Shown here one piece after another: positions 11,271 through 32,559 of a DNA stretch of 40,729 nucleotides; the first letter of the stretch is position 1, and each line of letters opens with the position of its first letter. This stretch comes from a bacterium. Its GTDB lineage: Bacteria > Bacillota > Clostridia > Lachnospirales > Lachnospiraceae. Location of the stretch: positions 1-40,729 of the forward strand of contig JAUNRX010000018.1 of NCBI GenBank assembly GCA_030539495.1. The letters run 5' to 3'. The notes below the pieces were generated by a model. It was not told the DNA's origin. It did no database searches and was given only the letters and a program-made list of their open reading frames with translations. Both the position numbers and the translations under genes were made by a program.

Positions 11271-12674
11271 GTGGTTACGTATACAACAAAGTTTTCTGTT
11301 AATCAGACTTTTGATAAAAATGAGTTTGTCAAAATGGTGATAAAATGGAATCAGGGAAGTAAGTTCGATAAAATTGAAAACTTATATTGGGATGAGAAAA
11401 AATATGAATGCGAATGGACTCAGGAGAATGTTACATTGAAATTTCAAGAAATCGAAAGAGAATCCATTATTGCATCCAGACTTATAAAGGAAGATGAACA
11501 TGGTGTTTGGTTTACAGATTTTGTGTTGAACGAAGAGAATTGTTCATTAGCCATATCTGTATCACTCGAAACAACAGAGTTTACAACAGATTTTTTTCCA
11601 ACATATTATCCACCATTTTTTGTGAAAATGGTGTTGTTTGCTAAATATTCAGGAAGTGATAATGGACTAGAAGTTCGTAATTATGAACATGATGTTAATG
11701 AATGCATGGCTTTTTATAAAGGAGTTATTGCCAAAACAATTTTACCCGAATTACCAGTAGTATTTGTTGCAAGAACAAACAAAGGAAGTAATCCATTAGA
11801 TGTAAATAAATTGGCATTTAGACTGCAAGGAGTAGCACATGTGATTTGTGAATCGGAAGAGGGAACTATACTTAGTGGATTTACGGATGTCTTAGATAGT
11901 TGTGAGGATAGAGCAGGTAAAATATTTATCGAATATCCAAGTCGCAATAAAAAAAGTAGAATACTGAATATTACAGGTTCAAGTAGAGATTCTGATTACT
12001 TAGAAGATCGTGTTGTTAATGATGTGTACAATTACATGAATGCTAGAATGAGAAAGGCAATTGATACTTGGGATGGTGTTACAACAGAAAAATTACATAT
12101 AATTAATAGAGATTTGTTGTCAGACCAAATAGAAATACAAGAAGAAAATCGTAATTTATATGATGTATTTGGACTACATCTTGAAAAGATGGAAGAGTCA
12201 AACATCAAATTAAGTAACGATGTTCAAAGATTGACTGCAGAGTTACAAGGGCTCCGAATGAAATATTCGGATAAGAATCAGACCCCCGTACTATACCTTG
12301 GAGAAGAAAGAAACTTATATGCTGGTGAAATTAAGGAAATAATACTTGAGATTATGTCTGAATACCAGAAAAACTGCAAACAAGGATCAAGAAGAAGCCA
12401 TATTATTTCTGACTTGATAGAAAGTAACGAGTTTAAGGGGATTCCAGAAAAAAGAAGAGAACAATTAAAAAGAGCATTAAAAGGGTACAAAACATTAAAT
12501 GGGTCTATGAAGAGTTTATTAGAAACCTTCGGATTCGAAATCAGTGATGATGGAAAACACTATAAGTGGACATATTATGGTGACCAGAGATATGTGGTTA
12601 CAGCAGCAAAAACAGCAAGTGATGGAAGAGCTGGAATGAATTTATCATCAATAATTGATAAATTAATAAATTAG
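11271..12674 (+). CDS. Operon gene 1: unknown protein with coiled coil and possible HicA-like tail
   Basis: A 467-residue protein not recognised as a whole. The start is GTG 11271, because GGAGGT (11258-11263) lies seven bases before it; the upstream TTG at 11256 overlaps that site. The N-terminal 160 or so residues look like a mixed beta domain with many aromatic residues. Next comes a probable alpha/beta region, then a short coiled coil near residues 300-340. The C-terminal 120 residues are helical and finish with GKHYKWTYYGDQRYVVTAAK followed by NLSSIIDKLIN. That pattern (G-x-H-x-K, beta strands, closing helix) is reminiscent of the HicA/dsRBD-like fold; this is only a visual resemblance. 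It begins the operon, 69 bases before the vWA gene. Confidence 0.75.
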   Translation: MVTYTTKFSVNQTFDKNEFVKMVIKWNQGSKFDKIENLYWDEKKYECEWTQENVTLKFQEIERESIIASRLIKEDEHGVWFTDFVLNEENCSLAISVSLETTEFTTDFFPTYYPPFFVKMVLFAKYSGSDNGLEVRNYEHDVNECMAFYKGVIAKTILPELPVVFVARTNKGSNPLDVNKLAFRLQGVAHVICESEEGTILSGFTDVLDSCEDRAGKIFIEYPSRNKKSRILNITGSSRDSDYLEDRVVNDVYNYMNARMRKAIDTWDGVTTEKLHIINRDLLSDQIEIQEENRNLYDVFGLHLEKMEESNIKLSNDVQRLTAELQGLRMKYSDKNQTPVLYLGEERNLYAGEIKEIILEIMSEYQKNCKQGSRRSHIISDLIESNEFKGIPEKRREQLKRALKGYKTLNGSMKSLLETFGFEISDDGKHYKWTYYGDQRYVVTAAKTASDGRAGMNLSSIIDKLIN

Positions 12675-12743
12675 TTTATTTATGAAATCATATGTCCAAG
12701 ATAAAAATATAAAAATGAAGTTTGATATGAGGAGGAAATTATT

Positions 12744-13442
12744 ATGGCATTTAATCCAAATAATTACAAAGCACCTGAGGCAAAGAAGTTACCAGTAATA
12801 CTATTATTAGATGTAAGTGGAAGTATGAGTGGAGCAAAAATTGATAGCTTATATGATGCAACTATTGATATGATTGAAACATTTGTGACTGCACAAGCAA
12901 AGGAACAGATTATTGATGTTGCTATTATTACTTTTGGAGATAAAGTTGAATTACATACAAGGTATACACATGTAAAAGATCTTCAAGCAAAGGGAATAAG
13001 TAAATTTAAGGCTTCAGGTATGACACCAATGGGAACTGCATTAAGAATGGCAAAAGATATGATTGATGATAAACAGGAAACACCTTCTAGAATCTATCGC
13101 CCTGCAGTTGTATTAGTTTCAGATGGTGCACCTAACGATGATTGGAAAGGTGCAATGAATAAATTTATTACAGATGGACGTTCTGCGAAATGTCAAAGAT
13201 TTGCTGTTGCAATTGGAAATGATGCTGATAGGGATGTGCTTGAAAAATTTACACAAGATCCAAATACAGTATTGTTCGCAGAAGATTCTAGAGACATCGC
13301 TGAACAGTTTAAAACTATTAGTATGTCAGTATCTACTAGGGCAACTAGCCAGAATCCAAACAGTGTTCCAACTCCGACCAATATACCGAAGTTCGATAAT
13401 AACACTGCTAATGATACAGATGACGATGATGATTTATATTAA
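12744..13442 (+). CDS. Operon gene 2: von Willebrand factor A domain protein
   Basis: A 232-residue soluble vWA protein with a full metal-ion-dependent adhesion site: DVSGSM near residue 23, the Thr in GMTPMGTAL, and the Asp in LVSDGAPND. The fold fills residues 15-200, similar to TerY/TerF-type intracellular vWA proteins that nucleate complexes through a metal ion. The last 30 residues are a Pro/Thr/Asn-rich linker ending in a run of Asp, probably a flexible acidic tail. GGAGG precedes the ATG, and the WXG100-like gene follows after 18 bases. Confidence 0.9.
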   Translation: MAFNPNNYKAPEAKKLPVILLLDVSGSMSGAKIDSLYDATIDMIETFVTAQAKEQIIDVAIITFGDKVELHTRYTHVKDLQAKGISKFKASGMTPMGTALRMAKDMIDDKQETPSRIYRPAVVLVSDGAPNDDWKGAMNKFITDGRSAKCQRFAVAIGNDADRDVLEKFTQDPNTVLFAEDSRDIAEQFKTISMSVSTRATSQNPNSVPTPTNIPKFDNNTANDTDDDDDLY

Positions 13443-13460
13443 TTATAATGGAGGAAAAAA

Positions 13461-13730
13461 ATGTCGCAAGCAATAGGGGATCCAGAGGAAATTAGAGCTT
13501 TTTCGAATAATTTGGAACATTATTTAAATACTGTTCAAGAAGAGACTGATAGATTGAATTCAGCATTTGAGCAATTAGGTGAGTCGTGGCAAGACCAGCA
13601 GAGAGCAAGTTTTGAAGAAACATTAAAGCAACTTTTGAATGCTTTACAAAATTTCAAGGAAAATGCTTCTGAACAAATACCACATCTACGTATAATGGCA
13701 GAGGATTTAAGCACATATTTAGGAAGGTAG
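13461..13730 (+). CDS. Operon gene 3: WXG100-like helical hairpin protein
   Basis: An 89-residue protein with the size and layout of WXG100 proteins: an N-terminal helix rich in Glu/Asn, a turn LGESWQDQQ with Trp43-Gln-Asp45 in the place of W-x-G, a conserved-type Phe51, and a long second helix ending near residue 86. Typical WXG100 proteins are exported by type VII secretion with the ATPase EssC/EccC. Here there is no EccB/D/E or EssA/B partner, the C-terminal secretion motif YxxxD/E is not evident, and the neighbours are cytosolic nuclease and motor proteins. An intracellular adaptor role is inferred. Confidence 0.75.
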   Translation: MSQAIGDPEEIRAFSNNLEHYLNTVQEETDRLNSAFEQLGESWQDQQRASFEETLKQLLNALQNFKENASEQIPHLRIMAEDLSTYLGR

Positions 13731-13739
13731 TGAAAGGTT

Positions 13740-14975
13740 ATGAAGGGAACTGCAAGCGTTTTTGATGTTCAAGCGATGTGCAATGCAGCTCAAGAGATTT
13801 ATCAAACGAAAAATACTACCTTTGATACGTGCAATGAAGGCCTGAATCAGGCACAACAATTATTGGATGAGACACAAACGGAAGAGCAAATCAGTAAAAC
13901 GATGCTTGATGTTGCAATAGGGGTTGAGATGGCGAAACATGCCATCGTGATAGAATTGGAGGCTAGACTTGCAGTGGCTTTGGCAGAGCTTGCTGCAGTT
14001 ACTCCAGACCCCATAGCAATGGCTGCTGTTGGTATGAAAATTGAGGAGATTGGATCTCAGTTAATTCCAGCCAGACAGGAATATGAAGAAGCCGTCAGAC
14101 ATCGTGAGGCACTGGAACACAGATATGAATTAGCGGTTAAGTGTGTAAATCTGGCCAAGGAACGAATGGACACTTTACAGATGAAGTTTGAAGCGGGTAA
14201 ACGCAGTATTGAAGGTATTACTGACAAGGGATGTGCAAGGCTTGATTTGGCATATCATGATTTAACACAGTATATCTCGCGGATTACTCCGGAAGCTAGA
14301 GAAGGGCTGAATCGATGGTTTAATGATAAACCTGAGAAAAATACACCGGTACGACCGAATGAAATACGTGATAAGTTAGATGTTAATGAGCCTATTACGG
14401 ATGCTATATTGGAGTATCTGTATGCTACAGATGCAGGGTTTCGAGCGAATGTTGATGGTTATTGTAATGAAATGAGAGCAGGGGACCAGGTAGGAGCAGA
14501 GTTAAAGATCAAGAAGCAAATGGTTGGAAGACTATGTGAAGAAATTGTGATCCGAGCATTTAAGCCAATTAGTACAACAATAAGTACACAGGCAAAAGAA
14601 TCGCTGCCAGACGGAAGATATACAAAAGTGGATATGATCGTATACGGCCTTACAAATCCTCTCGTATTAGGCAGAGGCGAAGGGATGGGCGCTAGAGAAC
14701 GCGGCAGTTTAGCGGTTGAAGTAAAATCTGGACACAGCTCGTATTTGTATCAGCAGTTAAGCCATTTACAAGATCAAGCATATGGACATAAGGGGTGTGA
14801 TGCCTCTTGTGTTATATGCACACGTGATATTCATGACTTATCGTTTGAGAAAGAAAATGAATTAAGAGAAAAATTAAGAGAAGCAGGTTCACCTATGATT
14901 GGAATGCTGCCAAGAAAAGACGATCTGGACAATCGATGCATTCATTTTGTGAAGGGGAAAATAAAAGATGTTTAG
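13740..14975 (+). CDS. Operon gene 4: coiled-coil protein with PD-(D/E)XK nuclease core
   Basis: A 411-residue protein. Residues 1-170 are alpha-helical and largely coiled coil, of the kind found as WXG/LXG-type partners. A linker follows. The C-terminal region 255-410 has the signs of a PD-(D/E)XK nuclease: a helix with CEEIVIRAF (about 265), Asp298 in KVDMIVYG, then Glu327-Val-Lys329 in LAVEVKSG on the next strand, and a Gln/His-rich helix YLYQQLSHLQDQAYG. This order (E, D, ExK) predicts a metal-dependent DNase or RNase. It lies between the WXG100-like gene (9 bases) and a small gene it overlaps by 8 bases, and is the most likely cutting subunit of the system. Confidence 0.75.
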   Translation: MKGTASVFDVQAMCNAAQEIYQTKNTTFDTCNEGLNQAQQLLDETQTEEQISKTMLDVAIGVEMAKHAIVIELEARLAVALAELAAVTPDPIAMAAVGMKIEEIGSQLIPARQEYEEAVRHREALEHRYELAVKCVNLAKERMDTLQMKFEAGKRSIEGITDKGCARLDLAYHDLTQYISRITPEAREGLNRWFNDKPEKNTPVRPNEIRDKLDVNEPITDAILEYLYATDAGFRANVDGYCNEMRAGDQVGAELKIKKQMVGRLCEEIVIRAFKPISTTISTQAKESLPDGRYTKVDMIVYGLTNPLVLGRGEGMGARERGSLAVEVKSGHSSYLYQQLSHLQDQAYGHKGCDASCVICTRDIHDLSFEKENELREKLREAGSPMIGMLPRKDDLDNRCIHFVKGKIKDV

Positions 14976-15174
14976 TGAAGCAAGAGGTCAATTAAACAAC
15001 AGTAAATCTACATTTTCGGAGAAGGCGAATGATTCTTTTGGTAATTCAATTGTGAAAGAGGTATATAAACCTTTCGAGAGTGATTTACAAATGATGGATA
15101 TTGTTTGGGATGAAGCAGAAGCTAGAAAAATGGAGATTATGGCGATTCTATTGGAATTGAGAACTATTTTATAA
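14968..15174 (+). CDS. Operon gene 5: small helical protein of unknown function
   Basis: A 68-residue protein overlapping the end of the nuclease gene by 8 bases, with AAGGGG upstream of its ATG. It is Ser/Asn-rich at the start, then a single amphipathic helix containing VWDEAEARKMEIMAILLELR. Size and position suggest a small partner, possibly pairing with the WXG100-like protein or the nuclease coiled coil. No family recognised. Confidence 0.65.
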   Translation: MFSEARGQLNNSKSTFSEKANDSFGNSIVKEVYKPFESDLQMMDIVWDEAEARKMEIMAILLELRTIL

Positions 15175-15187
15175 AAGAGGGTTATCT

Positions 15188-17833
15188 ATGCAGAAAAATC
15201 AAGAAACAATGGAAGGTTTGCTATATTGCTTAGATGATGCAATATCATCGAGAAATAGAAGATATGAAACATTAGATGCGCAGTATAAGAACGAGAATGG
15301 TCATATCTTGCAAAGCCAGTATGATGAATATTCAAGTCGAAAAAAATCTATAACGAATCGATTTAAGGAGGAAGCAATTGATTATCAAGAAAAGATAGAC
15401 AGACTATGCCAGAGGATAAGAAAATCACAACCATCCTTACTTGAACTTTCGGCATCTAATATTAATGTAAAGAATAGATTCCCAAGGAATATTGCTCTTG
15501 GAAAGTTACATGTAAGATACAACAATCTTGATTTTTATGTTCCGAAAACATTTTCTTTCCCTTTTGACCGTCCAATGTATATCTGTGATGATACTAAGGT
15601 AGTACTGCTTCATAAGGTGCTGCTTCGTCTTTTATTCACACTTCCCATCAATAAACAGGAATACTATGTTTTTGATCCAATCGGGTTAGGTAAAACAATC
15701 GGTAAGTTCAATTCGCTGTTTTCTAATGAACAACTATTCCCACAGAAAAAGATATTGTCTTCAACAATAGAGTTGAAAGCGGCGCTCAAGGATGTAACGA
15801 ACTACATATTAGATTTGCAGAGCAATGTTTTTAATATTGAGTCTGATTGTCAAGATTGGGATTCTTACAATAGACGGCTTTATTCTCAAAGGGAAATAAG
15901 GAAAATACTGACATATAAAGTATTCATTTTTACAGCAGTTCCAGATGGTATGGATCAGGAATGCTTTGATATGTTTCGAACATTGATTGCGCACGGAAAG
16001 CAATGCGGATTAATGATTCTGTTTTCCTTTAATGAAGCTATATTCAATCTTGAAGATAGCAGAATGAAAAAAATGGAGGTTGATTTAAAGGGCTGCATTG
16101 AACAGAGTATACAATTGCATCATGTTTTTGAAGAAGATGACATCAATAAAAACTATTCAAATTTAACAACGGAAAATATCGGTGAAAAATTTCCGGATGA
16201 CCATTCTCTCAGTATTTTGCTAAATGAGATAAAGAGTGTGGCTGACCAACAAAGTGGGCAAGGGATATCTTTTGATGAATTAATGGAACAGGGAAATCTG
16301 TTTCAGGGTAATTCAAAAGATGGATTAAGCATTCCAATCGGCTGCGGAGCATCCGGTAACAGTAAACTAGAACTTTTTGTGGGAGATTCAACCCCCCATT
16401 ATTTGATCGGAGGAACAACAGGTTCGGGTAAATCGAATTTATTACATAATTTGATTATTAGTGCATGTTGTAAATATAGCCCAAATGAATTGAGAGTATA
16501 TTTACTGGATTTTAAAGAAGGTGTTGAATTTAGCCAGTATGTGAATCCGAAGTTAAAACATGCAATGCTTGTCGCTACAGAAGCTGACACGGAATATGGG
16601 ATCACTGTATTAAAGCATCTGTTGGATGAAAAAGAAAGAAGATATGCGGCATTCAAAAATAGTGGCTGTAAGGATATTCAAGGGTATCGAAACAAAAACT
16701 CAACAGCACTTATGCCTAGAATCCTCGCAGTTATCGATGAATTCCAGGTCTTGTTTGGTAATACACAAAAAGACCAAACGATTGCTACATTGGAGATGAT
16801 CGCAAAACAAGGCCGTGCATGTGGAATACATTTAGTTTTAGCAACACAATCCTTAAAAGGAATCGATTTTTCAACTCTTGGACCACAATTTGGAGGCCGA
16901 ATTGCACTGAAATGCTCGGCGGAAGACTCTAAGATCCTATTAGGAGGAATTACCTCGAATAATGAAGAGGCATCTGGATTAAAAGTTCCATATGCAATAT
17001 TAAACACCACGCAGGGAAATGTTTCAGGTAATGTTAAATTTATGGTGCCAAAAGCAGAAGAATCCAAGATCTCTGAGAGTATCTGCTTGATCGAACAAAG
17101 ATGTGATGAACTTGGCATTGAAACAGAAACAAGGATATTCGAGGGGCAAAGTTTGCCGGGTAGACCGAAAACCGTGGTAAGAAGCAGCACAAGGAATATG
17201 CAGATATGTTTCGGTGAATTGATGGATTATACTGCAGAACCATTTTTGTTGAATCTAAGACCACGTGTGACCGATAATTTATTGTTATGCGGTCACGATG
17301 ATAATATGAAAAAAAGTATGTTAGATTCCATTATCCAATCTGCTATCCATAGTGAATTCTGCGAAGAGATCATCTATGTTGGTGATGATAGTGAGATGAT
17401 CGATGTAAGTGTGCGGAATGAAGTGATCTGCGTCTGGTCGATGAAAGATTTTTGTGAGAAGTACACAGAAAACATGTATGACAAAAAGAGGGTTTTGATC
17501 ATAGATAATTGTAACTTGACGAAGCAGATCGGATACGCACCAACGATGTATGGAACTCCAAAACCAGAAGCCGCATTTTTTAAAGACTATATTGATAATG
17601 CAAATGAAAATGGCAGCTTTATCATGGCTTTTTATGAAGGTAGTAATCGAATAAAGAATTGCGGTGTTCCGAAAGATGAATTCAACTATAGGATTGGATA
17701 TTCAGTGAATGTTGATGAGAAAAATTTCTTACTTGGTGCTGGATCACAATCGAATGCACCGGTGAACAAAAATCGAGCATTTTTAGTGGATAATTTGGAA
17801 TTGAAGGCGTGGTTTCGACCATATTTAGCTTAG
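15188..17833 (+). CDS. Operon gene 6: soluble FtsK/SpoIIIE-family ATPase
   Basis: An 881-residue motor ATPase. Residues 1-90 are coiled coil. A first, probably degenerate ATPase-like domain includes Asp163 and a GLGKT string (166-170). The working domain has Walker A GTTGSGKS (409-416), Walker B LAVIDEF (Asp517, Glu518) and ATQSLKGIDFSTLGPQFGGR, typical of FtsK/SpoIIIE. A third domain from about 690 has lost its P-loop (LLLCGHDDNMKKSML). The three-domain layout recalls EssC/EccC of type VII secretion, but there is no membrane segment or FHA domain. It could pump DNA or act on the WXG100-like protein. It lies 13 bases after gene 5 and 11 before the TerY-like gene. Confidence 0.9.
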   Translation: MQKNQETMEGLLYCLDDAISSRNRRYETLDAQYKNENGHILQSQYDEYSSRKKSITNRFKEEAIDYQEKIDRLCQRIRKSQPSLLELSASNINVKNRFPRNIALGKLHVRYNNLDFYVPKTFSFPFDRPMYICDDTKVVLLHKVLLRLLFTLPINKQEYYVFDPIGLGKTIGKFNSLFSNEQLFPQKKILSSTIELKAALKDVTNYILDLQSNVFNIESDCQDWDSYNRRLYSQREIRKILTYKVFIFTAVPDGMDQECFDMFRTLIAHGKQCGLMILFSFNEAIFNLEDSRMKKMEVDLKGCIEQSIQLHHVFEEDDINKNYSNLTTENIGEKFPDDHSLSILLNEIKSVADQQSGQGISFDELMEQGNLFQGNSKDGLSIPIGCGASGNSKLELFVGDSTPHYLIGGTTGSGKSNLLHNLIISACCKYSPNELRVYLLDFKEGVEFSQYVNPKLKHAMLVATEADTEYGITVLKHLLDEKERRYAAFKNSGCKDIQGYRNKNSTALMPRILAVIDEFQVLFGNTQKDQTIATLEMIAKQGRACGIHLVLATQSLKGIDFSTLGPQFGGRIALKCSAEDSKILLGGITSNNEEASGLKVPYAILNTTQGNVSGNVKFMVPKAEESKISESICLIEQRCDELGIETETRIFEGQSLPGRPKTVVRSSTRNMQICFGELMDYTAEPFLLNLRPRVTDNLLLCGHDDNMKKSMLDSIIQSAIHSEFCEEIIYVGDDSEMIDVSVRNEVICVWSMKDFCEKYTENMYDKKRVLIIDNCNLTKQIGYAPTMYGTPKPEAAFFKDYIDNANENGSFIMAFYEGSNRIKNCGVPKDEFNYRIGYSVNVDEKNFLLGAGSQSNAPVNKNRAFLVDNLELKAWFRPYLA

Positions 17834-17844
17834 GGGGTCATGAA

Positions 17845-18297
17845 ATGGAAAAGGTGATTAATATAATTGTAGATGCTTCCGGCAGTATGGCTGAGGATGA
17901 TAAAAATGCTGTTGTAAAATATATGCTGAATGGAATATGTAATGCAAGCAGAACTGACTATTTTGCCAATATAGGTTTTGATCTATTCCAGTGGGGGAAA
18001 GTAACAAAACGGATTGAGAATATGGAAAAGGCTAAGATAGAGTTTTCTGGAAAATCCAATGTGAATGGTTTAGAGATTCTGAATGATTTGCTTGGTGATC
18101 AGGAGTCGATTGTGCTGATCAGTGATGGAAATATGGAACCTGCTGAGAAACAAAAACTGAAATCAATGGGAAAGCGAATTATACCAATATATGTTGGGAT
18201 TGATGCAAATCGAAGCGTATTGCAAGAGGTGTCTACGAATAAAGTTGTATATTCCGTAATGGATTTTATGCAAGCATTATCTGATGCACTGATTTAA
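17845..18297 (+). CDS. Operon gene 7: TerY-like vWA protein
   Basis: A 150-residue minimal vWA protein. The ATG at 17845 is preferred over 17809 because it follows GGGGGT and avoids a long overlap with the ATPase gene. The metal site has DASGSM (Asp10, Ser12, Ser14) and the Asp of ISDGN, but the usual Thr loop reads GKSNVNG, so the Thr is replaced. Directly followed by phosphatase and kinase genes, it completes the vWA + PP2C + kinase TerY-P triad described by comparative genomics of Ter systems, where the vWA protein is thought to scaffold the signalling pair. Confidence 0.85.
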   Translation: MEKVINIIVDASGSMAEDDKNAVVKYMLNGICNASRTDYFANIGFDLFQWGKVTKRIENMEKAKIEFSGKSNVNGLEILNDLLGDQESIVLISDGNMEPAEKQKLKSMGKRIIPIYVGIDANRSVLQEVSTNKVVYSVMDFMQALSDALI

Positions 18298-18318
18298 TGA
18301 AAGATGTGAGGTGGCAAC

Positions 18319-20409: not shown

Positions 20410-20411
20410 CG

Positions 20412-23891: not shown

Positions 23892-25956
23892 TCTTTTTAA
23901 GACAACAGCGTATGAAGAAACGTTTCCGAATGTTTCGACTTTGGGGAAAAAGGTTGATTTTTTTCTAGAGTGCAGCTCGTATGATGTGTTAATTCCTGTC
24001 AAAGTAAAGGGTGAAAGTAAACTTGATGTGTTTGAGGAAGCTGTATTGAAACTGATCGATTATAAGTCCTCAACAGCACGTGAAATGGCAGATATCTTAT
24101 GCTTAACACCGGATTTGATTAATTTCATTATGATTCGACTGCAGGAAATGGATTTATTGCAGGAAAATGGAAAGGATTTAACTGAAAATGGTAGGAAGTA
24201 TATTAAGATCGATCAGGGAAATATGGATGAACAAGATATAGAATATGCACAAGCAAAAGTATTTGTTCTGAATCAAACAGGTGAGATTTTACCTTACATT
24301 CAAAAGGGAGAGTTTATTACTGAGCCAGTGGAAGATATTCAGGGATCAAGGTTAACCGTTGAATATGGGACCATAGGAAATCCAATTCGAATCAGAGGAA
24401 AATTATTACGTCAGGATAGAGGAAGCAGAAAAAGAGGGATGCTTCAAAGTTCTGAAATAAGGAATGCATTCAAGCGATACAATCGAATCGTCAGAGAGAA
24501 TGTAAAATATGATGTTATTCAGTTTGCATCAGAATGGGCCATGGAAAACACGCCTTCGGATGATATTTGTTTTCATATGCAGGCAGTTGTTCAAAATGGA
24601 AATATAGATGAAATCCTGATCTCTGATGGTTTCGTGCTGAATATTGATTTCATCAATAACTATATAAAGAAAAATTATCCTGACTTTATCCTGACCGTAA
24701 AAGAGAGAGCAACCAGGAATATTGTTCAAGAGGGTAGTGAAGGTGAACAATCAGATCACAAAGTGGTACACAACTATAAATATCGTGAGTTAAGAAATTT
24801 AATGTCTAGAATCGCATCATCTTCTCAGTTATATACAATAAACGCTGGGGAGATAGAGAATTCTTTTAATCAAGATGAACAACAGATGCTCCAGGCAGAA
24901 CAAAAGAAGTTCTTATTAAACTGTTATTCAGCATTTGAATGGAGTTTGTTTTATTATGATTTGAAAAATCCAATCAACAGCCAGACGAGTGGCATTATTG
25001 AAAATCAAAGTGCATATCAAAATGCGAATACGATTCTGCAGATGGCCCTTAAACTGGGGGTATATCATCCTGAGAGATATGATGAACTGTTTTATACGTT
25101 AGATAGCAAAAGAATCAGGCGAATGTACAAAAATACTACTCCGGAGCTTCGAGTCGCATTAAGTATCGCTGTTATTACATCTGCGAATGATGAACAAAGT
25201 GCATTTCGACAATTATTTAGATCGCAGCCAGGGTTATTTCGAGTGTTAAGAAATCTCTTCCGAGAACATGGTGATCTATCCCATCAAACGTTGACATATG
25301 ACATTGATAAAGTTCGTAATAAAGAGATCTATGAGTTATTACTTGATTTTGTTAAGAATTTACAGCCAGATTACGTGGTTGATGGCAGCAATCAATTACA
25401 AAACAGCAGCGGTTCGATATCACAAGAACGGTTGAATGCAGAAGTAAGTCTGTCGAAGAAATTAGGAGCAATCTATTTTTATAATTTATTACCGCAATCT
25501 ATCAGGGATGAATGGATCTTAGTATCACCAGATAAGATCCGATATCCGGAAACAGCGGAGTTTTTTGATATCCTATATAGAATCATGCAAGACACATTGT
25601 TTTATTCGCTGAAGGATATCAGAAAAAATCCACAGTTAAAAATGGTGGACATTTTGTCAAAACTCAAAGGAAAAGGGATAAACTCAACATGTTTTAACAC
25701 CGTGAATGAAAAGTTTGTGAATCAGATCCTGATGAATGAAAATGCCACATTAGGTGCAAATGCGATGGTGTATTTGTACTATCAAAAAGATAATATGATT
25801 CAAGCTTTGATGGAAAATAACTTTGTTGAATTGATTGAACAATTGGTTCGGCTTAGAAAGCATGGAAATAATGTCACTTTAAGTGTTGATTCATGTACAC
25901 TTAGTAAAATAAGGGATAACATGCTGACAATTGCAAAAATAATAGGGGGAAACTAA
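23869..25956 (+). CDS. Operon gene 11: winged-helix protein of unknown function
   Basis: A 695-residue protein overlapping the helicase gene by 23 bases. Residues about 60-120 look like a winged helix: STAREMADILCLTPDLINFIMIRLQEMDLL, then a wing and LTENGRKYI. The remaining 570 residues are mixed, with a helical C-terminal half, and no nuclease, ATPase or phosphodiesterase motif found by eye (in particular no HxKxxxxD of phospholipase D). Translational coupling to the helicase and GTPase genes suggests a fixed subunit, perhaps a nucleic-acid-binding adaptor. Confidence 0.8.
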   Translation: MATPKVFSLFKTTAYEETFPNVSTLGKKVDFFLECSSYDVLIPVKVKGESKLDVFEEAVLKLIDYKSSTAREMADILCLTPDLINFIMIRLQEMDLLQENGKDLTENGRKYIKIDQGNMDEQDIEYAQAKVFVLNQTGEILPYIQKGEFITEPVEDIQGSRLTVEYGTIGNPIRIRGKLLRQDRGSRKRGMLQSSEIRNAFKRYNRIVRENVKYDVIQFASEWAMENTPSDDICFHMQAVVQNGNIDEILISDGFVLNIDFINNYIKKNYPDFILTVKERATRNIVQEGSEGEQSDHKVVHNYKYRELRNLMSRIASSSQLYTINAGEIENSFNQDEQQMLQAEQKKFLLNCYSAFEWSLFYYDLKNPINSQTSGIIENQSAYQNANTILQMALKLGVYHPERYDELFYTLDSKRIRRMYKNTTPELRVALSIAVITSANDEQSAFRQLFRSQPGLFRVLRNLFREHGDLSHQTLTYDIDKVRNKEIYELLLDFVKNLQPDYVVDGSNQLQNSSGSISQERLNAEVSLSKKLGAIYFYNLLPQSIRDEWILVSPDKIRYPETAEFFDILYRIMQDTLFYSLKDIRKNPQLKMVDILSKLKGKGINSTCFNTVNEKFVNQILMNENATLGANAMVYLYYQKDNMIQALMENNFVELIEQLVRLRKHGNNVTLSVDSCTLSKIRDNMLTIAKIIGGN

Positions 25957-28557
25957 ATGTATTCAGAAGTGAAGCAGGAATTTAGCGAAATTACTGAGAG
26001 AGAAACAGTTGCAGATCATACGGAGAGTAATCATGATGAGATGAGTAATGCATCGCAGGAAGTATTCGACATTGAAGCGATGAGAAAATCATTGGAGGCG
26101 AAAGCTGAAGAATTTTCCAGATGGCAAAAGGAATTGGCAGAGAAAGAATGTAGTTTGGCAGCGGAGTCTGTAAGGATTCAACAAGAAAGAGTAAAACTAG
26201 AGGAGAGAGAAAAGAGTGCAGAGGATGCGTTAAAACTGAAAATAGATGCGGAATATCTCGAGGCTAGAGCAAAACTTTCGGATGAGCAGACGAAAAGTAG
26301 AGAAGCTTTTGTTGCTGAATTGGAAAGTAAACGAGGTGATTTCGAAAGAAATCGTCAAAGAGCAATCAGTGAATTAAATAAGGAATTAGAAACTACAAGA
26401 GAAAATGCAAAAAAAGAGTTAGATACGATAAGAAGAAATCAAGAAGCAGAGTTAAGAAAGAATCGTGAAGAGAGCCAAAAAGAAATACTGAGACAGAGAG
26501 ATGAGCAGAAGGAAGCACTGAAAGCAGAAAAAGGGAAAGCACTTTTGCAATTACAAACAGAAATTTCTGAAAGAACGGCAGAACTAGCAAGAAGTGAGAA
26601 GGCTTTGTCAAGTGAACAAGCGCGTATTAAAGCTGAGAATGAAAGAGTAGATGAACTTGAAAGAAATATAGCGAATCGGGAAGAAAATCTGCTTGATCAA
26701 CAAAGAACTCTTGAAAGAGAAAAGCGTAGATTACAAAGAGAAAAGTCTAGGATCGAGGAAGCAAACGATAATCTTACAGATGTTGTAAATCAGAAAATTG
26801 ATGATACGATCAAGAATTTGAATCAAATGATTGAAACGAAAAATCATGAGCTTGAAAACTTAAGAGAACAGATGGCTGCAACTGTAAGAGAGATTGAACT
26901 TGTGAAGAGTTTCCGAGAAGCCTATGGTGAAGATCCACAAGTTTTAATTCAGTCATTAAAACAGTTAGAAGAAAGCAATAAAAAGCTTAGAGATAAATTA
27001 TCCAATTCATCCGATAAGACAGAGTTAGATAATATAGCTGCAGCATATAGAGAGTCTAAGGCAGAAGTGGAAAGATTATTGGAAGAGAATCGTCATTTGA
27101 GTGATTCTCAAGGCAGATTCGCAACTCTTGAAGCTCAGTTTAGAACTTTGGATAGTGAACATAAATCTTTACAGGCTACATGTGAGTCTCTTGAAAATCA
27201 ATTGGTGGCTAAGAATCAGGAGTTAGTTAGATTATCTGCTCCGGAGGGAAGAGTTGCTGATAGAGATGCAAGAATTGCTGCAATTATGATGGGCGCTTTG
27301 GATGATAAAAAAGATCTTGTTGGCGCAGGTGATGGATATGACAGCAGATATCATAAAAAAGATGAGATAGATTGGCTGCAAGGTGTTTGGAGCAAATGCG
27401 AAAAATATGGAATACGGTTTAATAAACGAATCTTATATGCTTTTCATACAGCATTGAAAATAAATGAATGGTCTACGATCACAGTGTTAGCTGGTGTTAG
27501 TGGAACAGGAAAATCGGAACTTCCACGTTTGTATTCTGAGTTCGGTGGATTGAATTTCTGCTCAGTAGCTGTACAACCTAATTGGGACAGCCAGGAATCA
27601 ATGCTTGGATTCTTTAATTCCATTGATAATCAGTTTGAACCAGAAGAGTTGTTAAAGTTTTTAGTCCAGTGTACTACGGATCCAAGATATAGCGACTATA
27701 TGAGTATTGTTTTGTTAGATGAGATGAATTTAGCTCACGTAGAACACTATTTTGCAGAGTTTTTAAGTAAATTAGAATCCAGAAGAGGTCTTTCAAAGAA
27801 ATATTTACCTGAAATCGAAGTTAAGCTAGGTGCAGGGGTAAAACCTTATGGTTTGAAGCTATTAAGAACATTGCTGTGGACTGGTACAATGAATCAGGAT
27901 GAAACAACAAAATCACTTTCAGACAAAGTATTGGATCGAGGAATTGTAGTTAATTTCCCAAGACCGAAAAAATTACAAAGTAGATCGCAGATGGGTCTTA
28001 TCACAGACTATATTGGGAATGACAGACCAAAACTTCATAAGGATACCTGGGAATCCTGGACGTGCCATGAAATAGAGTTTTCCGAAGAACAAATGAAGGA
28101 AATCGATAAGTATAAGGATATTGTTGAAAAGATCAATAATATATTAGAGGATGTTGGCAGAGCTCTGGGACATAGAGTATGGCAATCAATCGAGTACTAT
28201 ATCGTTAATTATCCAACCGTCAGACAAGCTATGAATTATCAGCCAAAACAGAATGAAAAGGGTAAGGTGATCTGGGTGCCTACAAACAGTGAACTTACTG
28301 GAGAATTACGAGAAGCAATGAGAACTGCATTCGAAGATCAGATTGTACAGAAGATCATGCCTAAGTTAAGAGGTATTGAAACTCGTGACAAGCGTGGAAA
28401 GAGCAGTTTGGATGCAATCGAAGATTTATTGGTTAATCATGATTTCTCAAGTTTACAAGAAGATTTCCGTATTGCTCGAGAGCAGGGATATGGCCAGTTT
28501 ATTTGGAACAGTGCAAAATATCTTGACGATAAGGAAGAAAAGGAATCTGAGGAATAA
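25957..28557 (+). CDS. Operon gene 12: coiled-coil McrB-like AAA+ GTPase
   Basis: An 866-residue protein starting on the base after the previous stop. Residues about 35-430 are an almost unbroken charged coiled coil rich in Glu, Arg and Lys. The AAA+ domain then has Walker A GVSGTGKS (513-520), Walker B LLDEMN (Asp588, Glu589) and the sensor TMNQDETTKSLSDKVLDR (from 644), corresponding to the McrB MNTAD signature with Glu649 in the final position. The McrB family hydrolyses GTP and works with an McrC/DUF2357 partner, here the next gene. No N-terminal modified-base reader is present; the coiled coil takes its place, as in CoCoNuT-type systems. Confidence 0.92.
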   Translation: MYSEVKQEFSEITERETVADHTESNHDEMSNASQEVFDIEAMRKSLEAKAEEFSRWQKELAEKECSLAAESVRIQQERVKLEEREKSAEDALKLKIDAEYLEARAKLSDEQTKSREAFVAELESKRGDFERNRQRAISELNKELETTRENAKKELDTIRRNQEAELRKNREESQKEILRQRDEQKEALKAEKGKALLQLQTEISERTAELARSEKALSSEQARIKAENERVDELERNIANREENLLDQQRTLEREKRRLQREKSRIEEANDNLTDVVNQKIDDTIKNLNQMIETKNHELENLREQMAATVREIELVKSFREAYGEDPQVLIQSLKQLEESNKKLRDKLSNSSDKTELDNIAAAYRESKAEVERLLEENRHLSDSQGRFATLEAQFRTLDSEHKSLQATCESLENQLVAKNQELVRLSAPEGRVADRDARIAAIMMGALDDKKDLVGAGDGYDSRYHKKDEIDWLQGVWSKCEKYGIRFNKRILYAFHTALKINEWSTITVLAGVSGTGKSELPRLYSEFGGLNFCSVAVQPNWDSQESMLGFFNSIDNQFEPEELLKFLVQCTTDPRYSDYMSIVLLDEMNLAHVEHYFAEFLSKLESRRGLSKKYLPEIEVKLGAGVKPYGLKLLRTLLWTGTMNQDETTKSLSDKVLDRGIVVNFPRPKKLQSRSQMGLITDYIGNDRPKLHKDTWESWTCHEIEFSEEQMKEIDKYKDIVEKINNILEDVGRALGHRVWQSIEYYIVNYPTVRQAMNYQPKQNEKGKVIWVPTNSELTGELREAMRTAFEDQIVQKIMPKLRGIETRDKRGKSSLDAIEDLLVNHDFSSLQEDFRIAREQGYGQFIWNSAKYLDDKEEKESEE

Positions 28558-28565
28558 AAGAAGAG

Positions 28566-28595
28566 CTGCATAATAAATTAATGTTCATTATGCAG
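28566..28595 (+). promoter_or_regulatory. Intergenic hairpin between the GTPase and DUF2357 genes
   Basis: CTGCATAAT (28566-28574) and ATTATGCAG (28587-28595) form a perfect 9-bp stem with a 12-base loop, followed by ACTTTATT. It fills most of the 63-base gap. It could be an RNA processing or partial termination site that sets the relative amount of the last protein. Confidence 0.5.
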
Positions 28596-28620
28596 ACTTT
28601 ATTCCGAAAGGGTGTAGGTT

Positions 28621-31600
28621 ATGAATCACATTGATAATTACGAACAGTTTTGTAAAGCCTTTGACAGCGATGAAGAAGAACTAAAAAAGGAAGCAAAATT
28701 ATTATTGTTTATCCAAAACTGGATTATCAGAATCTTAGATTATATGGAAGAAGATACATTAGATTATAGCCTCAAGAAACTGATAGTACAGAATTCGGAT
28801 AAGATGGCAAATAGGAACAGCATGAAGGATGCACTTTCTAATATTGTGGATGGTTCAGATAATGCGTTTCGACATCTAGCGGATAGTATGAGAGAAAAGA
28901 TTATCCGTGAAAATGTACAAATGCCGGTTTATAAAGTCAGAGAAGTAAATAGTTATGGTTTGAATTGGCTTAGCCGGCAATCTGGAAAAACGATCAGACA
29001 AAAAGTATCCTCTGCAGGAAATTCAATCATGGCTGTTCAGCGTAGAATGAGTTTTGATACGGCAGAGAATCGTTTGTTTATTGCGTTTGTAAAAGAAATG
29101 TATGAACAGTTGATCACGAAATTAGAGTATGTACCGGATCATATGATAAGAAGTGAAGAGGAAGAACTTCGTGACGAATTATCAAGTTTCTTGCGCAGAC
29201 AGGATATAAAAGAAGTGAGAAGATGGGAGAATCTTCCGCCGAATAATACACTATTGTCTGATTCCAATTATAAGAAAATATGGAATGCATGGAATGAAAT
29301 GAAAAAGATCGATGAGCGGATCAGTAATAACTCAAATTTGTTGGGCGATCGCTTGGCTGCCATCTTCTATGTTGAATTATTAGTATATTTAAGAGATTCG
29401 TTGATCTTTCCTCAAGAACCTGTTGAAATTGATTACGATGAATATAAGGTTTATACATGTGATAAAGTAATTCATTGTCTGGATAAATCAGGGAATGTGA
29501 TTGATATATATAAAGAGAATAACTGTGTTTATGCGATATCAGGTTCAAACAGAGTAAAATCAGAGTTTTGTAGTAGAAAATTATTTATTTATGTAAATGA
29601 TGAAGTAGTAAATGAATATGAAGTATCTCAGGAATCATTTTTTAGCTATATTAAATTAGTAGCTGCTAAGTTAGGTGTAAGTTCATTAATGAATCAAGGC
29701 AAGCCGGTAAGAAAAGAAGAAAAAAAATTCAAGAATGTAATCATTGATCTATTTTCATTACATCCCGGATATATTGGAGATGAGAATGAGTATGATAAGC
29801 TATCCGAACGAATTCTGCAGCAAAAGTATGTAGGTTTGGATATTGATGGTGATGAAAGAAATTATTATATACCATGTGATAATACGAATGCCATTAAAAT
29901 GATCCCGGGGATAACAGAAACATATACAATTCCGTTTGCAGTTGATAATGGATCCATGGATCAAATGAAACGTTTGATGCATATGATGGACAATTACATC
30001 GTAACGGATTCATTTACTTATGTATTTCCGGATGCTTATAATGAATTACAGCTAAGCATGGTTCATAAAGCGGCAAGGATGGTTTACCACAAAGTAAGGA
30101 ACATTCCGGTAAGTATCGGGGTGGCTTTTAACTACCAGACAACAGAGAATTATCAATGCAAATTTGAGCCTGGAGATTTTCTATTAGTTGTTAATCTTAT
30201 AGATGATGAAATTACGTTTACCTTGGTGGCCGGAGAACATGATGATGCGATAGAGAACGATGTGAATGAATACAAGGGCATAGGCTGGGAGAGACATCCG
30301 ACATCAACAACGATATTGAAGGATGCAATCGAGGATAATATCATCGATCGTCTCACCAAAATGGGATGTGCAATGTCTGACAAGATGTATAAACTATTGG
30401 CACTGGATGGACTACGTGATGAAACAGACAAGTTAAGTGTGTATTGGGGGAATGAGTGGTTTCAGATTACGGAAGAAACGAAATCTACTGTTGAAAAATT
30501 CAAGCTAAATATCACAGACGCTGTTTCGGAATTTATCACAAGGAATCGATCCGTTGTTAAAGGCTCGCAAGTACACATTATCTCTGTTGTTGAAAACCTG
30601 ATCTATAAAGGTTCGTTACCATTCACTTACATGAGTAAGAAGGATGTATTAGAAGGATGTAAAAATCTGCAGATCCTGGAACAGAGAAGCGAAAGCCCTT
30701 TGTGGCATGATCATCTTCCGGCGTTAGCAATTAAGCTGATGTATGGTAAGTTTGATTTAATAAAAAATGCTAGAGTTGAACCTTGTTTTGAAGAAAAGCA
30801 GAGCATATCTATTAATGGATCCTTTACTTTGCCTAAGAATTGCAAGGAGTATCATTTTAATCTTGTCCAGGATGAAAATGCTAGAAAAATGCAATATGAG
30901 GCTGTTATTAAACATCCTGTATTTCCTCTAGCGCAGGATGTAGAGTGCAATTTGATCATGACGTATCAATACGGCGCGGAAGATCCTTATGAGTTGATTT
31001 TTGTACCAAAAGATCCTAAGGCTGCAAAATTCTCTGAAGCAAAGGTTCATTGGTTCAGGTTAGAAAAGTATGGAATTGAGGATTTGAAGGCACCAGATTT
31101 CCCAAGTAAAATACATTGGGATGATCTAAAACATTATCCGGGACGAAAAGGTGACTTAATAAACGTAGTTGAGGTTTTAGAAGATGAATTTAAATTATTA
31201 AATGAGGGCTATTACACTTTTGACGTATCAAATACGCTTATGAGAAAAGGCAAAGATGATAATTGGCTTGGGGAGTTTCCGTTTCAAAAGGATGGAGAGG
31301 ATATTAAAGTATCTTGGTCACAAAGAGATTGGGATAAAGAATCAGTGCCTCCTGATCCTATTTCCAAAATATCATTTTGGCTTGTTCCAAATGTATATGA
31401 AAATGAAAAGAAAAGTGGAAAACGATATTATATTCATGATCTTATCGCAGCAAGAACAAGAGATAATTTATGGTTTATGAATAGAAATGGTGGCTACCAG
31501 TGTATTGTAAATATGATTTACGAGGGAGTGGAATCCACCGTATCTTTAATCGACCAAAAATTTGATATGCCAGAAAAATTCCATTTGGGTATCAATAATG

Positions 31601-32559
31601 TTTCTTTTGAAGTGTGGAAAATGCCAAACGGAAACTTGCAGGCATTCAATATTCACAATGAAGATGGAGAAGATGCTCCGAAGCGCTTTAAAGCAATAAA
31701 TATATGTGAGGGTGGTGCGACACCTGTTCCACCAAGATTTTTTATCAATGCGTATTATGGTAAATGGACTCGTACATTGTTTGCTAATAATAGATCTTTG
31801 TCAGAGCAAGAATGCCCTAGAGAATTTCAAATTAGCTTTGCAAAATCTGTTAGTAATTGGGTGAATTTATTTTATCAGTATAGAAAAGCGGATGATAAGA
31901 AAGCACTATTTGCTTTACTTTCTTTAGTTGCGATGGATATAGGAAAAGGGTATTATGATATGGCCTATGATTTATTGGAGATGTATAGATATGGAGAAAT
32001 AGATATTCCTTATGAAATTGGATGTGCTTTTTGTGATCTGTCAAATAGTATGCAGCGGGAATTACTTGAAGCAACTCTTGTAGAAGTAAAAGAAGACTAT
32101 GAGGCAATTTGTATTTTAGCAAAAGCAATCTGGCATAATGAGCAATTTGTTTATAATGTTGATATAGATTTACTTTTAAACGTATATTTCCCAAAGGCTG
32201 TGGATTATATTGGTAATGCGTTGAGTCGAACTCGAGGCGAAAGAATACTAAGAGAAGATTTAGAAAATGTTAAGTATTGCTTAGAATTTATTCTTGGAAT
32301 TATGAGACTGCGAAATCTAAATGACGAGATGATTACAAATAAATACTTATCGCTTAATAATTCAAAGATGCAGAAATTGTATAAATATCTTGAGATGATG
32401 GCTGATAACAATACAAAGATTTACTCTTTTCTAAAATTAGAGATAACTTCAAAAGGTATATATGAGAAGGTATGTGATTTATTATATGTGTTGTTAGTTT
32501 ATGTTACGGGATATAATACAGAAGGAGAAATACGAATTTCACTTAATATTGACGACTAA
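28621..32559 (+). CDS. Operon gene 13: DUF2357-like protein with degenerate Hsp70-like domain
   Basis: A 1312-residue protein in the McrC/DUF2357 position. Residues about 1-300 match DUF2357 features: a helical N-terminus, RMSFDTAENRLFIAF (Asp146) and PPNNTLLSDSNYKKIWNAW. No PD-(D/E)XK core was found. Instead residues about 415-712 follow the Hsp70 nucleotide-binding domain: VFPDAYNELQ (468-477) and the helix after it align with the Hsp70 segment after VPAYFND. GDFLLVVNLIDDEITF (518-533) sits where DLGGGTFD would be, and PLWHDHLPALAIKL matches the NPDEAVALGAA end. The phosphate-binding glycines are lost, so ATP hydrolysis is doubtful. The remainder is beta-rich, then helical. It is the last gene before the terminator. 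(With the unknown gene at 11271 as number 1, there are 13 reading frames if the tiny 68-residue gene is counted, 12 without it.). Confidence 0.8.
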   Translation: MNHIDNYEQFCKAFDSDEEELKKEAKLLLFIQNWIIRILDYMEEDTLDYSLKKLIVQNSDKMANRNSMKDALSNIVDGSDNAFRHLADSMREKIIRENVQMPVYKVREVNSYGLNWLSRQSGKTIRQKVSSAGNSIMAVQRRMSFDTAENRLFIAFVKEMYEQLITKLEYVPDHMIRSEEEELRDELSSFLRRQDIKEVRRWENLPPNNTLLSDSNYKKIWNAWNEMKKIDERISNNSNLLGDRLAAIFYVELLVYLRDSLIFPQEPVEIDYDEYKVYTCDKVIHCLDKSGNVIDIYKENNCVYAISGSNRVKSEFCSRKLFIYVNDEVVNEYEVSQESFFSYIKLVAAKLGVSSLMNQGKPVRKEEKKFKNVIIDLFSLHPGYIGDENEYDKLSERILQQKYVGLDIDGDERNYYIPCDNTNAIKMIPGITETYTIPFAVDNGSMDQMKRLMHMMDNYIVTDSFTYVFPDAYNELQLSMVHKAARMVYHKVRNIPVSIGVAFNYQTTENYQCKFEPGDFLLVVNLIDDEITFTLVAGEHDDAIENDVNEYKGIGWERHPTSTTILKDAIEDNIIDRLTKMGCAMSDKMYKLLALDGLRDETDKLSVYWGNEWFQITEETKSTVEKFKLNITDAVSEFITRNRSVVKGSQVHIISVVENLIYKGSLPFTYMSKKDVLEGCKNLQILEQRSESPLWHDHLPALAIKLMYGKFDLIKNARVEPCFEEKQSISINGSFTLPKNCKEYHFNLVQDENARKMQYEAVIKHPVFPLAQDVECNLIMTYQYGAEDPYELIFVPKDPKAAKFSEAKVHWFRLEKYGIEDLKAPDFPSKIHWDDLKHYPGRKGDLINVVEVLEDEFKLLNEGYYTFDVSNTLMRKGKDDNWLGEFPFQKDGEDIKVSWSQRDWDKESVPPDPISKISFWLVPNVYENEKKSGKRYYIHDLIAARTRDNLWFMNRNGGYQCIVNMIYEGVESTVSLIDQKFDMPEKFHLGINNVSFEVWKMPNGNLQAFNIHNEDGEDAPKRFKAINICEGGATPVPPRFFINAYYGKWTRTLFANNRSLSEQECPREFQISFAKSVSNWVNLFYQYRKADDKKALFALLSLVAMDIGKGYYDMAYDLLEMYRYGEIDIPYEIGCAFCDLSNSMQRELLEATLVEVKEDYEAICILAKAIWHNEQFVYNVDIDLLLNVYFPKAVDYIGNALSRTRGERILREDLENVKYCLEFILGIMRLRNLNDEMITNKYLSLNNSKMQKLYKYLEMMADNNTKIYSFLKLEITSKGIYEKVCDLLYVLLVYVTGYNTEGEIRISLNIDD

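What the first reader, a model, noticed from the sequence alone, without database searches (positions are those of the whole stretch)
11271..32559. A 21-kb operon combining a TerY-P triad, a WXG100/FtsK/nuclease module and an McrB-like/DUF2357/UPF1-helicase module
Thirteen reading frames on one strand have gaps of 0-70 bases or small overlaps, one upstream promoter and one strong terminator. Seen directly: kinase, phosphatase, two vWA proteins, FtsK-type ATPase, SF1 helicase, McrB-like GTPase, a PD-(D/E)XK core and a WXG100-like protein. From the literature: TerY-P triads were predicted to link to DNA processing, and coiled-coil McrB/DUF2357/UPF1 sets belong to CoCoNuT-type systems, for which TerY-P neighbours have been noted as I recall. 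Inferred: a phosphorylation-gated immune machine in which the WXG100/FtsK/nuclease part is an effector. I know of no experimental description of this full set.
Basis: partly seen in the sequence, partly recalled or inferred. Interest (0 to 1): 0.93.

Follow-up and report, generated by a model that had tools for sequence, protein, structure and literature searches.

The report
Extended CoCoNuT phage-defence operon variant
A bacterial gene set of a kind already predicted from genomes to fight viruses, in a variant whose first gene belongs to an unnamed protein family that turns up in two different branches of this kind of system.

Summary
In detail: 13 co-directional frames (11271-32559), junctions of -23 to +69 bases, closed by a strong terminator. 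It is not chance adjacency, and the set is already in print: it matches the "compound Type III-A CoCoNuT with 5' extension" (EssC/WXG100 class) of Bell et al. 2024 (PMC11090510); a similar gene list stands in a 2016 Helicobacter paper (PMC4978471). A Caballeronia plasmid and an E. coli chromosome keep the same order. Differences here: no CARF-nuclease gene, no 113-125-aa partner beside the nuclease, and a 467-aa first gene ("gene 1") that matches no Pfam or NCBIfam family above cut-off. Of 47 gene-1 relatives from one pattern scan of genome contigs, the four nearest lie in CoCoNuT loci and form one clade with the window copy (100/100), while their CoCoNuT cores fall in two lineages. Gene 1 sits 5' in one architecture and 3' in the other: it looks like a recurring CoCoNuT accessory. 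Secretion of the WXG100/nuclease part, thought likely in print, is not favoured in this host: no EssB/YukC, no second WXG100, no clear membrane segment. The mechanism (RNA-targeting core, phosphorylation gate, intracellular nuclease-loading ATPase) is inference. New variant of a known kind.

The parts
11271..12674 (+). gene 1, 467 aa, GTG start; unnamed family; C-terminal ~75 aa weakly HicA-like (dsRBD-type fold candidate)
   Evidence: No Pfam/NCBIfam family above cut-off; Rootletin 0.011 and PADLOC HEC-07 0.0095 only; 47 relatives; clade with CoCoNuT-linked copies; HicA profile 42.8% vs at most 3.6% in 100 column shuffles
12744..13442 (+). vWA1 (TerY-like), full MIDAS DxSxS...T...D
   Evidence: PF00092 6.7e-18; alignment
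13461..13730 (+). WXG100 protein, 89 aa
   Evidence: PF06013 9.8e-9; only WXG100 match in the genome
13740..14975 (+). coiled coil + D-ExK (PD-(D/E)xK-like) nuclease, E327/K329
   Evidence: motif and alignment with L028, L024, L079; no Pfam nuclease hit
14968..15174 (+). 68-aa protein, candidate WXG100-like partner without the motif
   Evidence: similar small proteins in the same slot of L024, L025, L079, likeness by inspection
15188..17833 (+). FtsK/EssC-like ATPase, single P-loop (K415), no clear transmembrane segment
   Evidence: PF01580 5.9e-31; TIGR03924 EccCa 1e-31, below its full-length cut-off; PDB 4nh0 8.1e-31, EccC5 1.3e-20
17845..18297 (+). vWA2, shorter, lacks the middle MIDAS Thr
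   Evidence: VWA_2 1.4e-3, below cut-off
18319..19005 (+). PP2C phosphatase of the TerY-P triad
   Evidence: PF13672 2.5e-23
19006..20409 (+). Ser/Thr kinase with C-terminal zinc ribbon (CGHC...CPWC)
   Evidence: PF00069 2.8e-10; motifs
20412..23891 (+). CnuH, UPF1-like SF1 helicase
   Evidence: AAA_12 1e-36, AAA_11 9.2e-29; MkoA 1.4e-84
23869..25956 (+). CnuE; C-terminal RxH motif kept, first HEPN motif Rx6H instead of Rx4H
   Evidence: alignment with six relatives; MkoB 1.2e-10
25957..28557 (+). CnuB, long coiled coil + McrB-like GTPase with NxD motif (MNQDE)
   Evidence: PDC-M26A 4.6e-33
28562..28600 (+). hairpin between CnuB and CnuCD, possible attenuator or processing site
   Evidence: fold z -4.2
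28621..32559 (+). CnuCD, DUF2357 (McrC N-terminal domain) with long C-terminal part, no nuclease family detected
   Evidence: PF09823 3.1e-8
32628..32660 (+). intrinsic terminator

Best explanation
A compound Type III-A CoCoNuT operon (TerY-P triad + CnuH/CnuE/CnuB/CnuCD core + EssC/WXG100/D-ExK extension), in a variant that lacks the CARF-nuclease and carries gene 1 instead. Shown by sequence: identity of the set, its order in distant genomes, and the link of one gene-1 clade to two CoCoNuT lineages. Inferred: it is an intracellular antiviral machine. CnuB/CnuCD and CnuH bind aberrant or viral RNA-translation complexes and drive the CnuE HEPN RNase; kinase, phosphatase and the two vWA proteins set its on/off state; the soluble EssC-like hexamer, with the WXG100 and 68-aa helical proteins as adaptors, holds and releases the D-ExK nuclease inside the cell; gene 1, with a possible HicA-like RNA-binding end, is a recognition or adaptor subunit feeding the core. 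I put the identification at about 0.95 and the detailed mechanism at about 0.35; the confidence below is for the whole statement read broadly (defence, intracellular, gene 1 a functional component).
For: Core features: NxD GTPase motif, coiled coil, DUF2357 and SF1 helicase, RxH motif, TerY-P triad, two vWA genes flanking an EssC-like ATPase with one P-loop, as described in PMC11090510. Same order in L024 and L079. Gene 1: 4 of 47 genome contigs relatives are in CoCoNuT loci and they are the four nearest; with the window copy one clade, 100/100, one label change, 0 of 500 shuffles as low. CoCoNuT cores split: window with L024/L079/L080/L081 (95/94), L029-L031 apart (99/96), AU p 0.029 against one clade of gene-1 bearers. 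Intracellular: no YukC/EssB match in the 91%-complete genome while the control rings in B. subtilis, the window's WXG100 is the only match, highest 19-residue hydropathy 1.72 in the nuclease's N-terminal helical part and 1.62 in CnuCD.
Against: No experiment. Its CoCoNuT-linked clade is 5 copies, all in Clostridia; no gene-1 relative was found in four proteobacterial Type III-A loci (L024, L079, L080, L081). The CnuB tree has 10 rows, one of them (L079) only partly filled, and the AU p is modest and the group was chosen after seeing the gene-1 tree. The first HEPN motif is displaced, so CnuE may be partly inactive. Hsp70, SPB, RTL and OB domains, on which the RNA-targeting idea rests, were not detected by sequence. 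Membrane segments were judged by a simple hydropathy window. The draft genome could hide a T7SS gene, and T7SS variants without EssB exist (PMC11217815, passages).
Confidence: 0.6

Rival explanations
1. The EssC/WXG100/nuclease part is a defensive or antibacterial secretion device, as proposed in print for these loci; the nuclease is a secreted toxin and the CoCoNuT only a neighbour under shared control.
For: EccC/EssC relationship, WXG100. In a Helicobacter plasmid the same slot holds a WHH/colicin-DNase nuclease followed by a SUKH (SMI1/KNR4) protein, a pairing I recall from toxin-immunity cassettes. Bell et al. [quoted passage not shown]
Against: No EssB/YukC and no other WXG100 match in the genome; no clear membrane segment in the 13 proteins; same cassette in Gram-negative hosts L024 and L079; no immunity-like gene beside the window's nuclease.
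Confidence: 0.2
2. Gene 1 is only a passenger of the mobile element, not part of the system.
For: 43 of 47 relatives show no CoCoNuT gene on the DNA held, 18 of these with at least 8.6 kb on both sides, and they sit beside varied genes, e.g. a Piwi protein. Gene 1 has the longest junction (69 bases). Proteobacterial Type III-A loci lack it.
Against: One CoCoNuT-linked clade in two core lineages, at opposite ends of the operon, the 3' copies following CnuCD and a MYG1-like gene in the same direction.
Confidence: 0.2
3. The FtsK-like hexamer pumps DNA, not protein, towards the D-ExK nuclease (HerA/FtsK capture type of defence).
For: FtsK/SpoIIIE family, PADLOC SspH 9.2e-31, PDB DNA translocases among the matches; such capture systems are discussed for HerA/FtsK (PMC12839542, passages).
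Against: Best NCBIfam matches are the protein-secretion EccC/EssC ATPases, EccC5 and YukB are among the top PDB matches, and the WXG100 partner is typical of those.
Confidence: 0.2

Closest known systems
Compound Type III-A CoCoNuT, EssC/WXG100 5' extension (Bell et al. 2024, PMC11090510)
   Same: TerY-P triad, duplicated vWA, EssC-like ATPase, WXG100, coiled-coil D-ExK nuclease, CnuH-CnuE-CnuB-CnuCD in one operon
   Different: No CARF-nuclease, no DNA-mimic-like partner, gene 1 at the 5' end, first HEPN motif displaced, no cold-shock domain detected in CnuCD at E 0.05
Caballeronia sp. SBC2 plasmid (L024) and E. coli ET734 (L079) loci
   Same: Same order vWA, WXG100, nuclease, small genes, FtsK, vWA2, PP2C, kinase, CnuH, CnuE, CnuB, CnuCD
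   Different: Carry a Card1-like CARF gene and a 113- or 125-aa gene after the nuclease; no gene-1 relative (tblastn). In L079 the CnuB match runs over two frames
Catenibacillus/MC2017/Acetobacterium CoCoNuT loci (L029, L030, L031; L086 upstream of L029)
   Same: CoCoNuT core, gene 1 of the same clade; TerY-P triad (looked at in L086 only)
   Different: No EssC extension in the Catenibacillus stretch read, gene 1 at the 3' end behind a MYG1-like gene, core of another lineage
Mokosh (MkoA/MkoB)
   Same: CnuH and CnuE match MkoA 1.4e-84 and MkoB 1.2e-10
   Different: Mokosh as I recall it has no McrB/DUF2357, no TerY-P and no WXG100/FtsK
T7SSc of Gram-positive bacteria (PMC11217815, passages)
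   Same: EccC-type ATPase, WXG100, vWA, kinase and PPM phosphatase together
   Different: Membrane-bound ATPase and kinase; no CoCoNuT core in the passages seen

Membership tests
CoCoNuT | NxD instead of NxxD in the McrB-like GTPase | tested here: met
   MNQDE, N at residue 646
CoCoNuT | Long coiled coil fused to the GTPase | tested here: met
   coiled-coil/SMC matches over residues ~170-430
CoCoNuT | DUF2357 partner, McrC nuclease lost or inactive | tested here: met
   PF09823; no nuclease family hit; absence by Pfam only
CoCoNuT Type II/III | UPF1-like SF1 helicase CnuH followed by CnuE | tested here: met
CoCoNuT Type III-A | CnuE with two HEPN domains, RxxxxH and RxH | tested here: inconclusive
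   RxH in 7 of 7 rows; RxxxxH in 6 of 7, the window has Rx6H (by inspection); HEPN fold not tested
CoCoNuT Type III-A | Hsp70-like and HEAT parts in CnuCD | tested here: inconclusive
   no Hsp70 in a profile search of the PDB; fold prediction unavailable
CoCoNuT Type III-A | Cold-shock domain(s) in CnuCD (most members) | tested here: inconclusive
   none in the window at E 0.05; PF00313 in L024 and L080, not in L081 or L029; the 7-row profile gives YB-1 at E 0.13
CoCoNuT Type III-A | SPB, RTL and OB domains in CnuH | not testable with these tools
   seen in print only on predicted structures; prediction switched off
CoCoNuT Type III-A | GTPase groups with known III-A members | tested here: met
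EssC 5' extension | Two vWA genes around an EssC-like ATPase, only the central P-loop intact | tested here: met
EssC 5' extension | Internal vWA shorter and without the middle MIDAS Thr | tested here: met
   (window and L028)
EssC 5' extension | Two WXG100-fold proteins, one with and one without the motif | tested here: inconclusive
   one with the motif; the 68-aa protein is a candidate for the other, fold not tested
EssC 5' extension | CARF-D-ExK gene in the operon | tested here: not met
   no gene between FtsK and vWA2 and no CARF match in the 13 proteins
EssC 5' extension | Protein like HU-binding DNA mimics after the nuclease | tested here: not met
   only the 68-aa frame lies there; L024 and L079 have 113- and 125-aa genes, which I take for it
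T7SSb secretion system | EssB/YukC and membrane-anchored EssC | tested here: not met
HicA (gene 1 C-terminus) | Sequence family match | tested here: inconclusive
   Pfam HicA in 1 of 30 rows at 0.018; hhalign 42.8% (79-column piece) and 32.4% (132-column piece); at most 3.6% in 100 column shuffles of the shorter piece

The most novel reading that the evidence does not exclude
Gene 1 founds a new family of RNA-recognising adaptor or sensor proteins that plug into unrelated defence machines (CoCoNuT, Argonaute, restriction enzymes) and that here replaces the CARF cyclic-nucleotide input, while the WXG100/EssC pair has been turned from secretion into an intracellular device that stores and fires a nuclease.
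Probability: 0.25. Interest if true: 0.78.

Novelty: new variant of a known kind. Interest (0 to 1): 0.5.

Why it matters
In my searches of open PMC papers I saw no bench test of a Type I-III CoCoNuT; only Druantia I/II, classed as Type IV CoCoNuT in PMC12458937 (passages), are established defence systems. This variant gives three direct questions: whether gene 1 is a required subunit (two natural architectures to compare), whether a WXG100/EssC pair can work inside a cell without a secretion system, and whether TerY-P phosphorylation switches the machine. If gene 1 replaces the CARF input, it would point to a signal other than cyclic nucleotides.

Tried and rejected
Chance adjacency in a defence island: rejected by conserved order in L028, L024, L079.

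Categorically new system: rejected; the set is described in PMC11090510 and largely listed in PMC4978471.

Frequency of the set: CnuE alone rang in 1 of 150 genomes of the family and 1 of 391 of the class, the FtsK N-terminal model in 1 of 299 of the phylum, the CnuB GTPase part in 2 of 381 at E 1e-30; in each the window's own genome is one of the hits. In 369 genomes of the class of G825 (Marichromatium) the only match was a piece with four stops inside, E 6.4e-5, taken as noise. These are lower bounds: G067 carries a CnuE that the single-sequence search did not report, although by its handle range that call drew on the same 150 genomes. Gene 1 rang in 8 of 150 genomes of the family, own included, and in 9 plasmid records, none covering 80% of it. 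The FtsK model found no relative in viral contigs; gene 1 found two distant relatives there (28 and 26%), not followed. The gene-1 scan of genome contigs used one C-terminal pattern, so 47 is not exhaustive.

att sites: no direct repeats that look like attachment sites were seen among the 20 families shown of 27. Rfam: nothing at gathering scores. Gene 1 in the PDB: Hsp70 pieces of about 30 residues and coiled coils, E 0.0068 or worse. Nuclease alignment in the PDB: five coiled-coil-type matches only. CnuB in the PDB: coiled-coil-type matches, no McrB. The many weak Pfam matches of WXG100 to helical families were ignored as composition.

Gene-1 tree: 30 rows, the window and 29 of 47 loci; 18 loci (L038, L046, L048, L051, L052, L053, L055-L058, L060, L063, L064, L066, L069, L072-L074) were left out as fragments, near-copies or not needed; none shows CoCoNuT genes. 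The first CnuB tree held a very long row (L083), which was dropped. The CnuH tree did not resolve the window's place.
Full report
What is there. The window is a whole contig (C140, 40,729 bases) of a 3.96-Mb draft genome, 257 contigs, 91% complete. Thirteen + strand frames run from 11271 to 32559 with junctions of -23 to +69 bases. A terminator hairpin follows. Promoter matches are at chance level, so the single promoter is not established, and a hairpin between CnuB and CnuCD could divide the transcript.

What the genes are. Pfam and NCBIfam name vWA1, WXG100, an FtsK/EccC-type ATPase, PP2C, a kinase, an SF1 helicase and DUF2357; vWA2 and the McrB-like AAA domain match only below the curated cut-offs. 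The GTPase carries the shortened NxD motif (MNQDE), the published mark of the branch that holds the CoCoNuTs. vWA1 has the full MIDAS motif and vWA2 lacks the middle Thr, the FtsK protein has one P-loop, and the nuclease has a D-ExK core. These are features given for the EssC class of compound Type III-A CoCoNuTs in PMC11090510, of which I read sections 7, 9, 10 and the first part of 11, plus passages.

Same set elsewhere. A Caballeronia plasmid (L024) and E. coli ET734 (L079) show vWA, WXG100, nuclease, two small genes, FtsK, CARF (Card1-like), vWA2, PP2C, kinase, CnuH, CnuE, CnuB, DUF2357; in L079 the gene at the vWA2 place is annotated only as hypothetical (aligned) and the CnuB match runs over two frames. 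Two further plasmids show layouts like the other published ones: AAA ATPase with CARF (L080), and two adjacent vWA-type genes with an ATP-binding protein gene at the 3' end (L081). tblastn finds no gene-1 relative in L024, L079, L080 or L081. So the window is a member of a described kind, with departures: no CARF gene, no 113-125-aa gene after the nuclease (present in L024 and L079), gene 1 at the 5' end, no cold-shock domain found in CnuCD at E 0.05 while L024 and L080 have one and L081 and L029 do not, and a first HEPN motif of Rx6H where six of six relatives have Rx4H.

Gene 1. No Pfam or NCBIfam family is matched above cut-off; over 30 members only scattered weak matches, mostly coiled-coil families, appear. 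A pattern scan of genome contigs gave 47 loci. tblastn with the window's proteins found CnuB, CnuH or CnuCD in 4 of 47 (L028-L031), which are also the four nearest relatives (75, 49, 48, 48% identity); the other 43 show none. Of those 43, 18 hold at least 8.6 kb on both sides; the rest are shorter on one or both sides, so absence is weaker there. In the tree of 30 rows the five CoCoNuT-linked copies form one clade, 100/100. L028 has the window's order from gene 1 to the start of CnuH, where the contig ends. L029-L031 have CnuE-CnuB-CnuCD-MYG1-like-gene 1, with a small coiled-coil-like frame before gene 1 in L030 and L031; the Catenibacillus locus, L086, also shows vWA-PP2C-kinase upstream of CnuH. 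In the CnuB tree the window groups with proteobacterial Type III-A loci and L029-L031 lie apart; holding the gene-1 bearers together is disfavoured at p 0.029. The same gene-1 clade therefore accompanies two CoCoNuT lineages, at opposite ends of the operon. Transfer between them, or old presence with losses, would both explain this. The C-terminal ~75 residues give 42.8% to a HicA profile (32.4% with a longer piece) against at most 3.6% in 100 column shuffles: suggestive of an RNA-binding dsRBD-type domain, not proof.

Inside or outside the cell. Bell et al. [quoted passage not shown] In this genome there is no YukC/EssB match, although the control rings in B. subtilis, and the window's WXG100 is the only match. 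None of the 13 proteins has a clear membrane segment by a simple hydropathy window. With Gram-negative carriers of the same cassette, I favour action inside the cell. The Helicobacter plasmid L025, which has WXG100 and FtsK but no CoCoNuT core in the stretch fetched, carries in the nuclease slot a WHH/colicin-DNase domain followed by a SUKH protein, a pairing I recall from toxin-immunity cassettes; the 2016 H. pylori paper names an LHH nuclease in the related cluster. So the slot may hold exchangeable nucleases that need restraint. The window's nuclease has no such neighbour, which is unexplained.

How it may work. Shown: gene content, motifs, conservation. Inferred from the families: an RNA-directed GTPase/helicase/HEPN core, a kinase-phosphatase-vWA switch, and an EssC-like hexamer that stores or releases a DNA nuclease; gene 1 as adaptor or sensor in place of the CARF input. 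I saw no bench test of this set or of a Type I-III CoCoNuT (open PMC papers, mostly search listings). Druantia I/II, called Type IV CoCoNuT in PMC12458937, and TerY-P-like modules with an OB-fold kinase (cited) are tested relatives.

Verdict. Observation confirmed; the system is known from prediction; this is a new variant with a new recurring component. Papers: PMC11090510 sections and passages; PMC4978471, PMC11217815, PMC12458937 and PMC12839542 passages only; others search listings only. The typing of L080, L081, L084 and L085 rests on gene order compared with the text, not on the authors' supplementary tables, which could not be read.

Noticed in passing
L029:9172-9984, L030:8649-9485, L031:8640-9467: A MYG1-like gene (PF03690 2.1e-42 in L029; L030 and L031 by inspection) starts within a few bases of the end of CnuCD in three CoCoNuT loci; MYG1 does not occur in the main text of the CoCoNuT paper.
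   Followed up: partly
L049:10260-12494: A gene-1 relative lies directly upstream of a 744-aa protein with a Piwi domain (PF02171 1.1e-21).
   Followed up: partly
L033-L036: Streptococcal gene-1 relatives lie downstream of a ~1460-aa gene in the same direction, with one or two genes between; in L033 the large gene carries Eco57I methylase and ResIII domains.
   Followed up: partly
L025:9677-11085: In a Helicobacter plasmid the nuclease slot of the WXG100/FtsK cassette holds a WHH/colicin-DNase domain followed by a SUKH protein.
   Followed up: partly
L026 and L027: Nine plasmid records (8 Klebsiella, 1 Citrobacter) carry distant, partial gene-1 relatives; L026 is a 5.9-kb ColRNAI-type plasmid.
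   Followed up: no
window 32806-35016: A sigma-like gene and a tyrosine integrase (names by inspection; Pfam gave nothing for the first) follow the operon; relatives of the sigma-like gene and of the upstream HTH gene also lie near the CoCoNuT of L030, hinting at a related mobile element.
   Followed up: partly
window 35590-36408: A 272-aa frame with a relative (38.6%) in L017/L039, one contig held twice, near another gene-1 copy.
   Followed up: no
window 5526-7469: Lysyl-tRNA synthetase-like frame with an extra C-terminal tRNA-binding-like domain (by inspection).
   Followed up: no
L011 and L012: Catenibacillus scindens holds two gene-1 family members, one beside the CoCoNuT and a distant one (26-27%) on another contig.
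   Followed up: no
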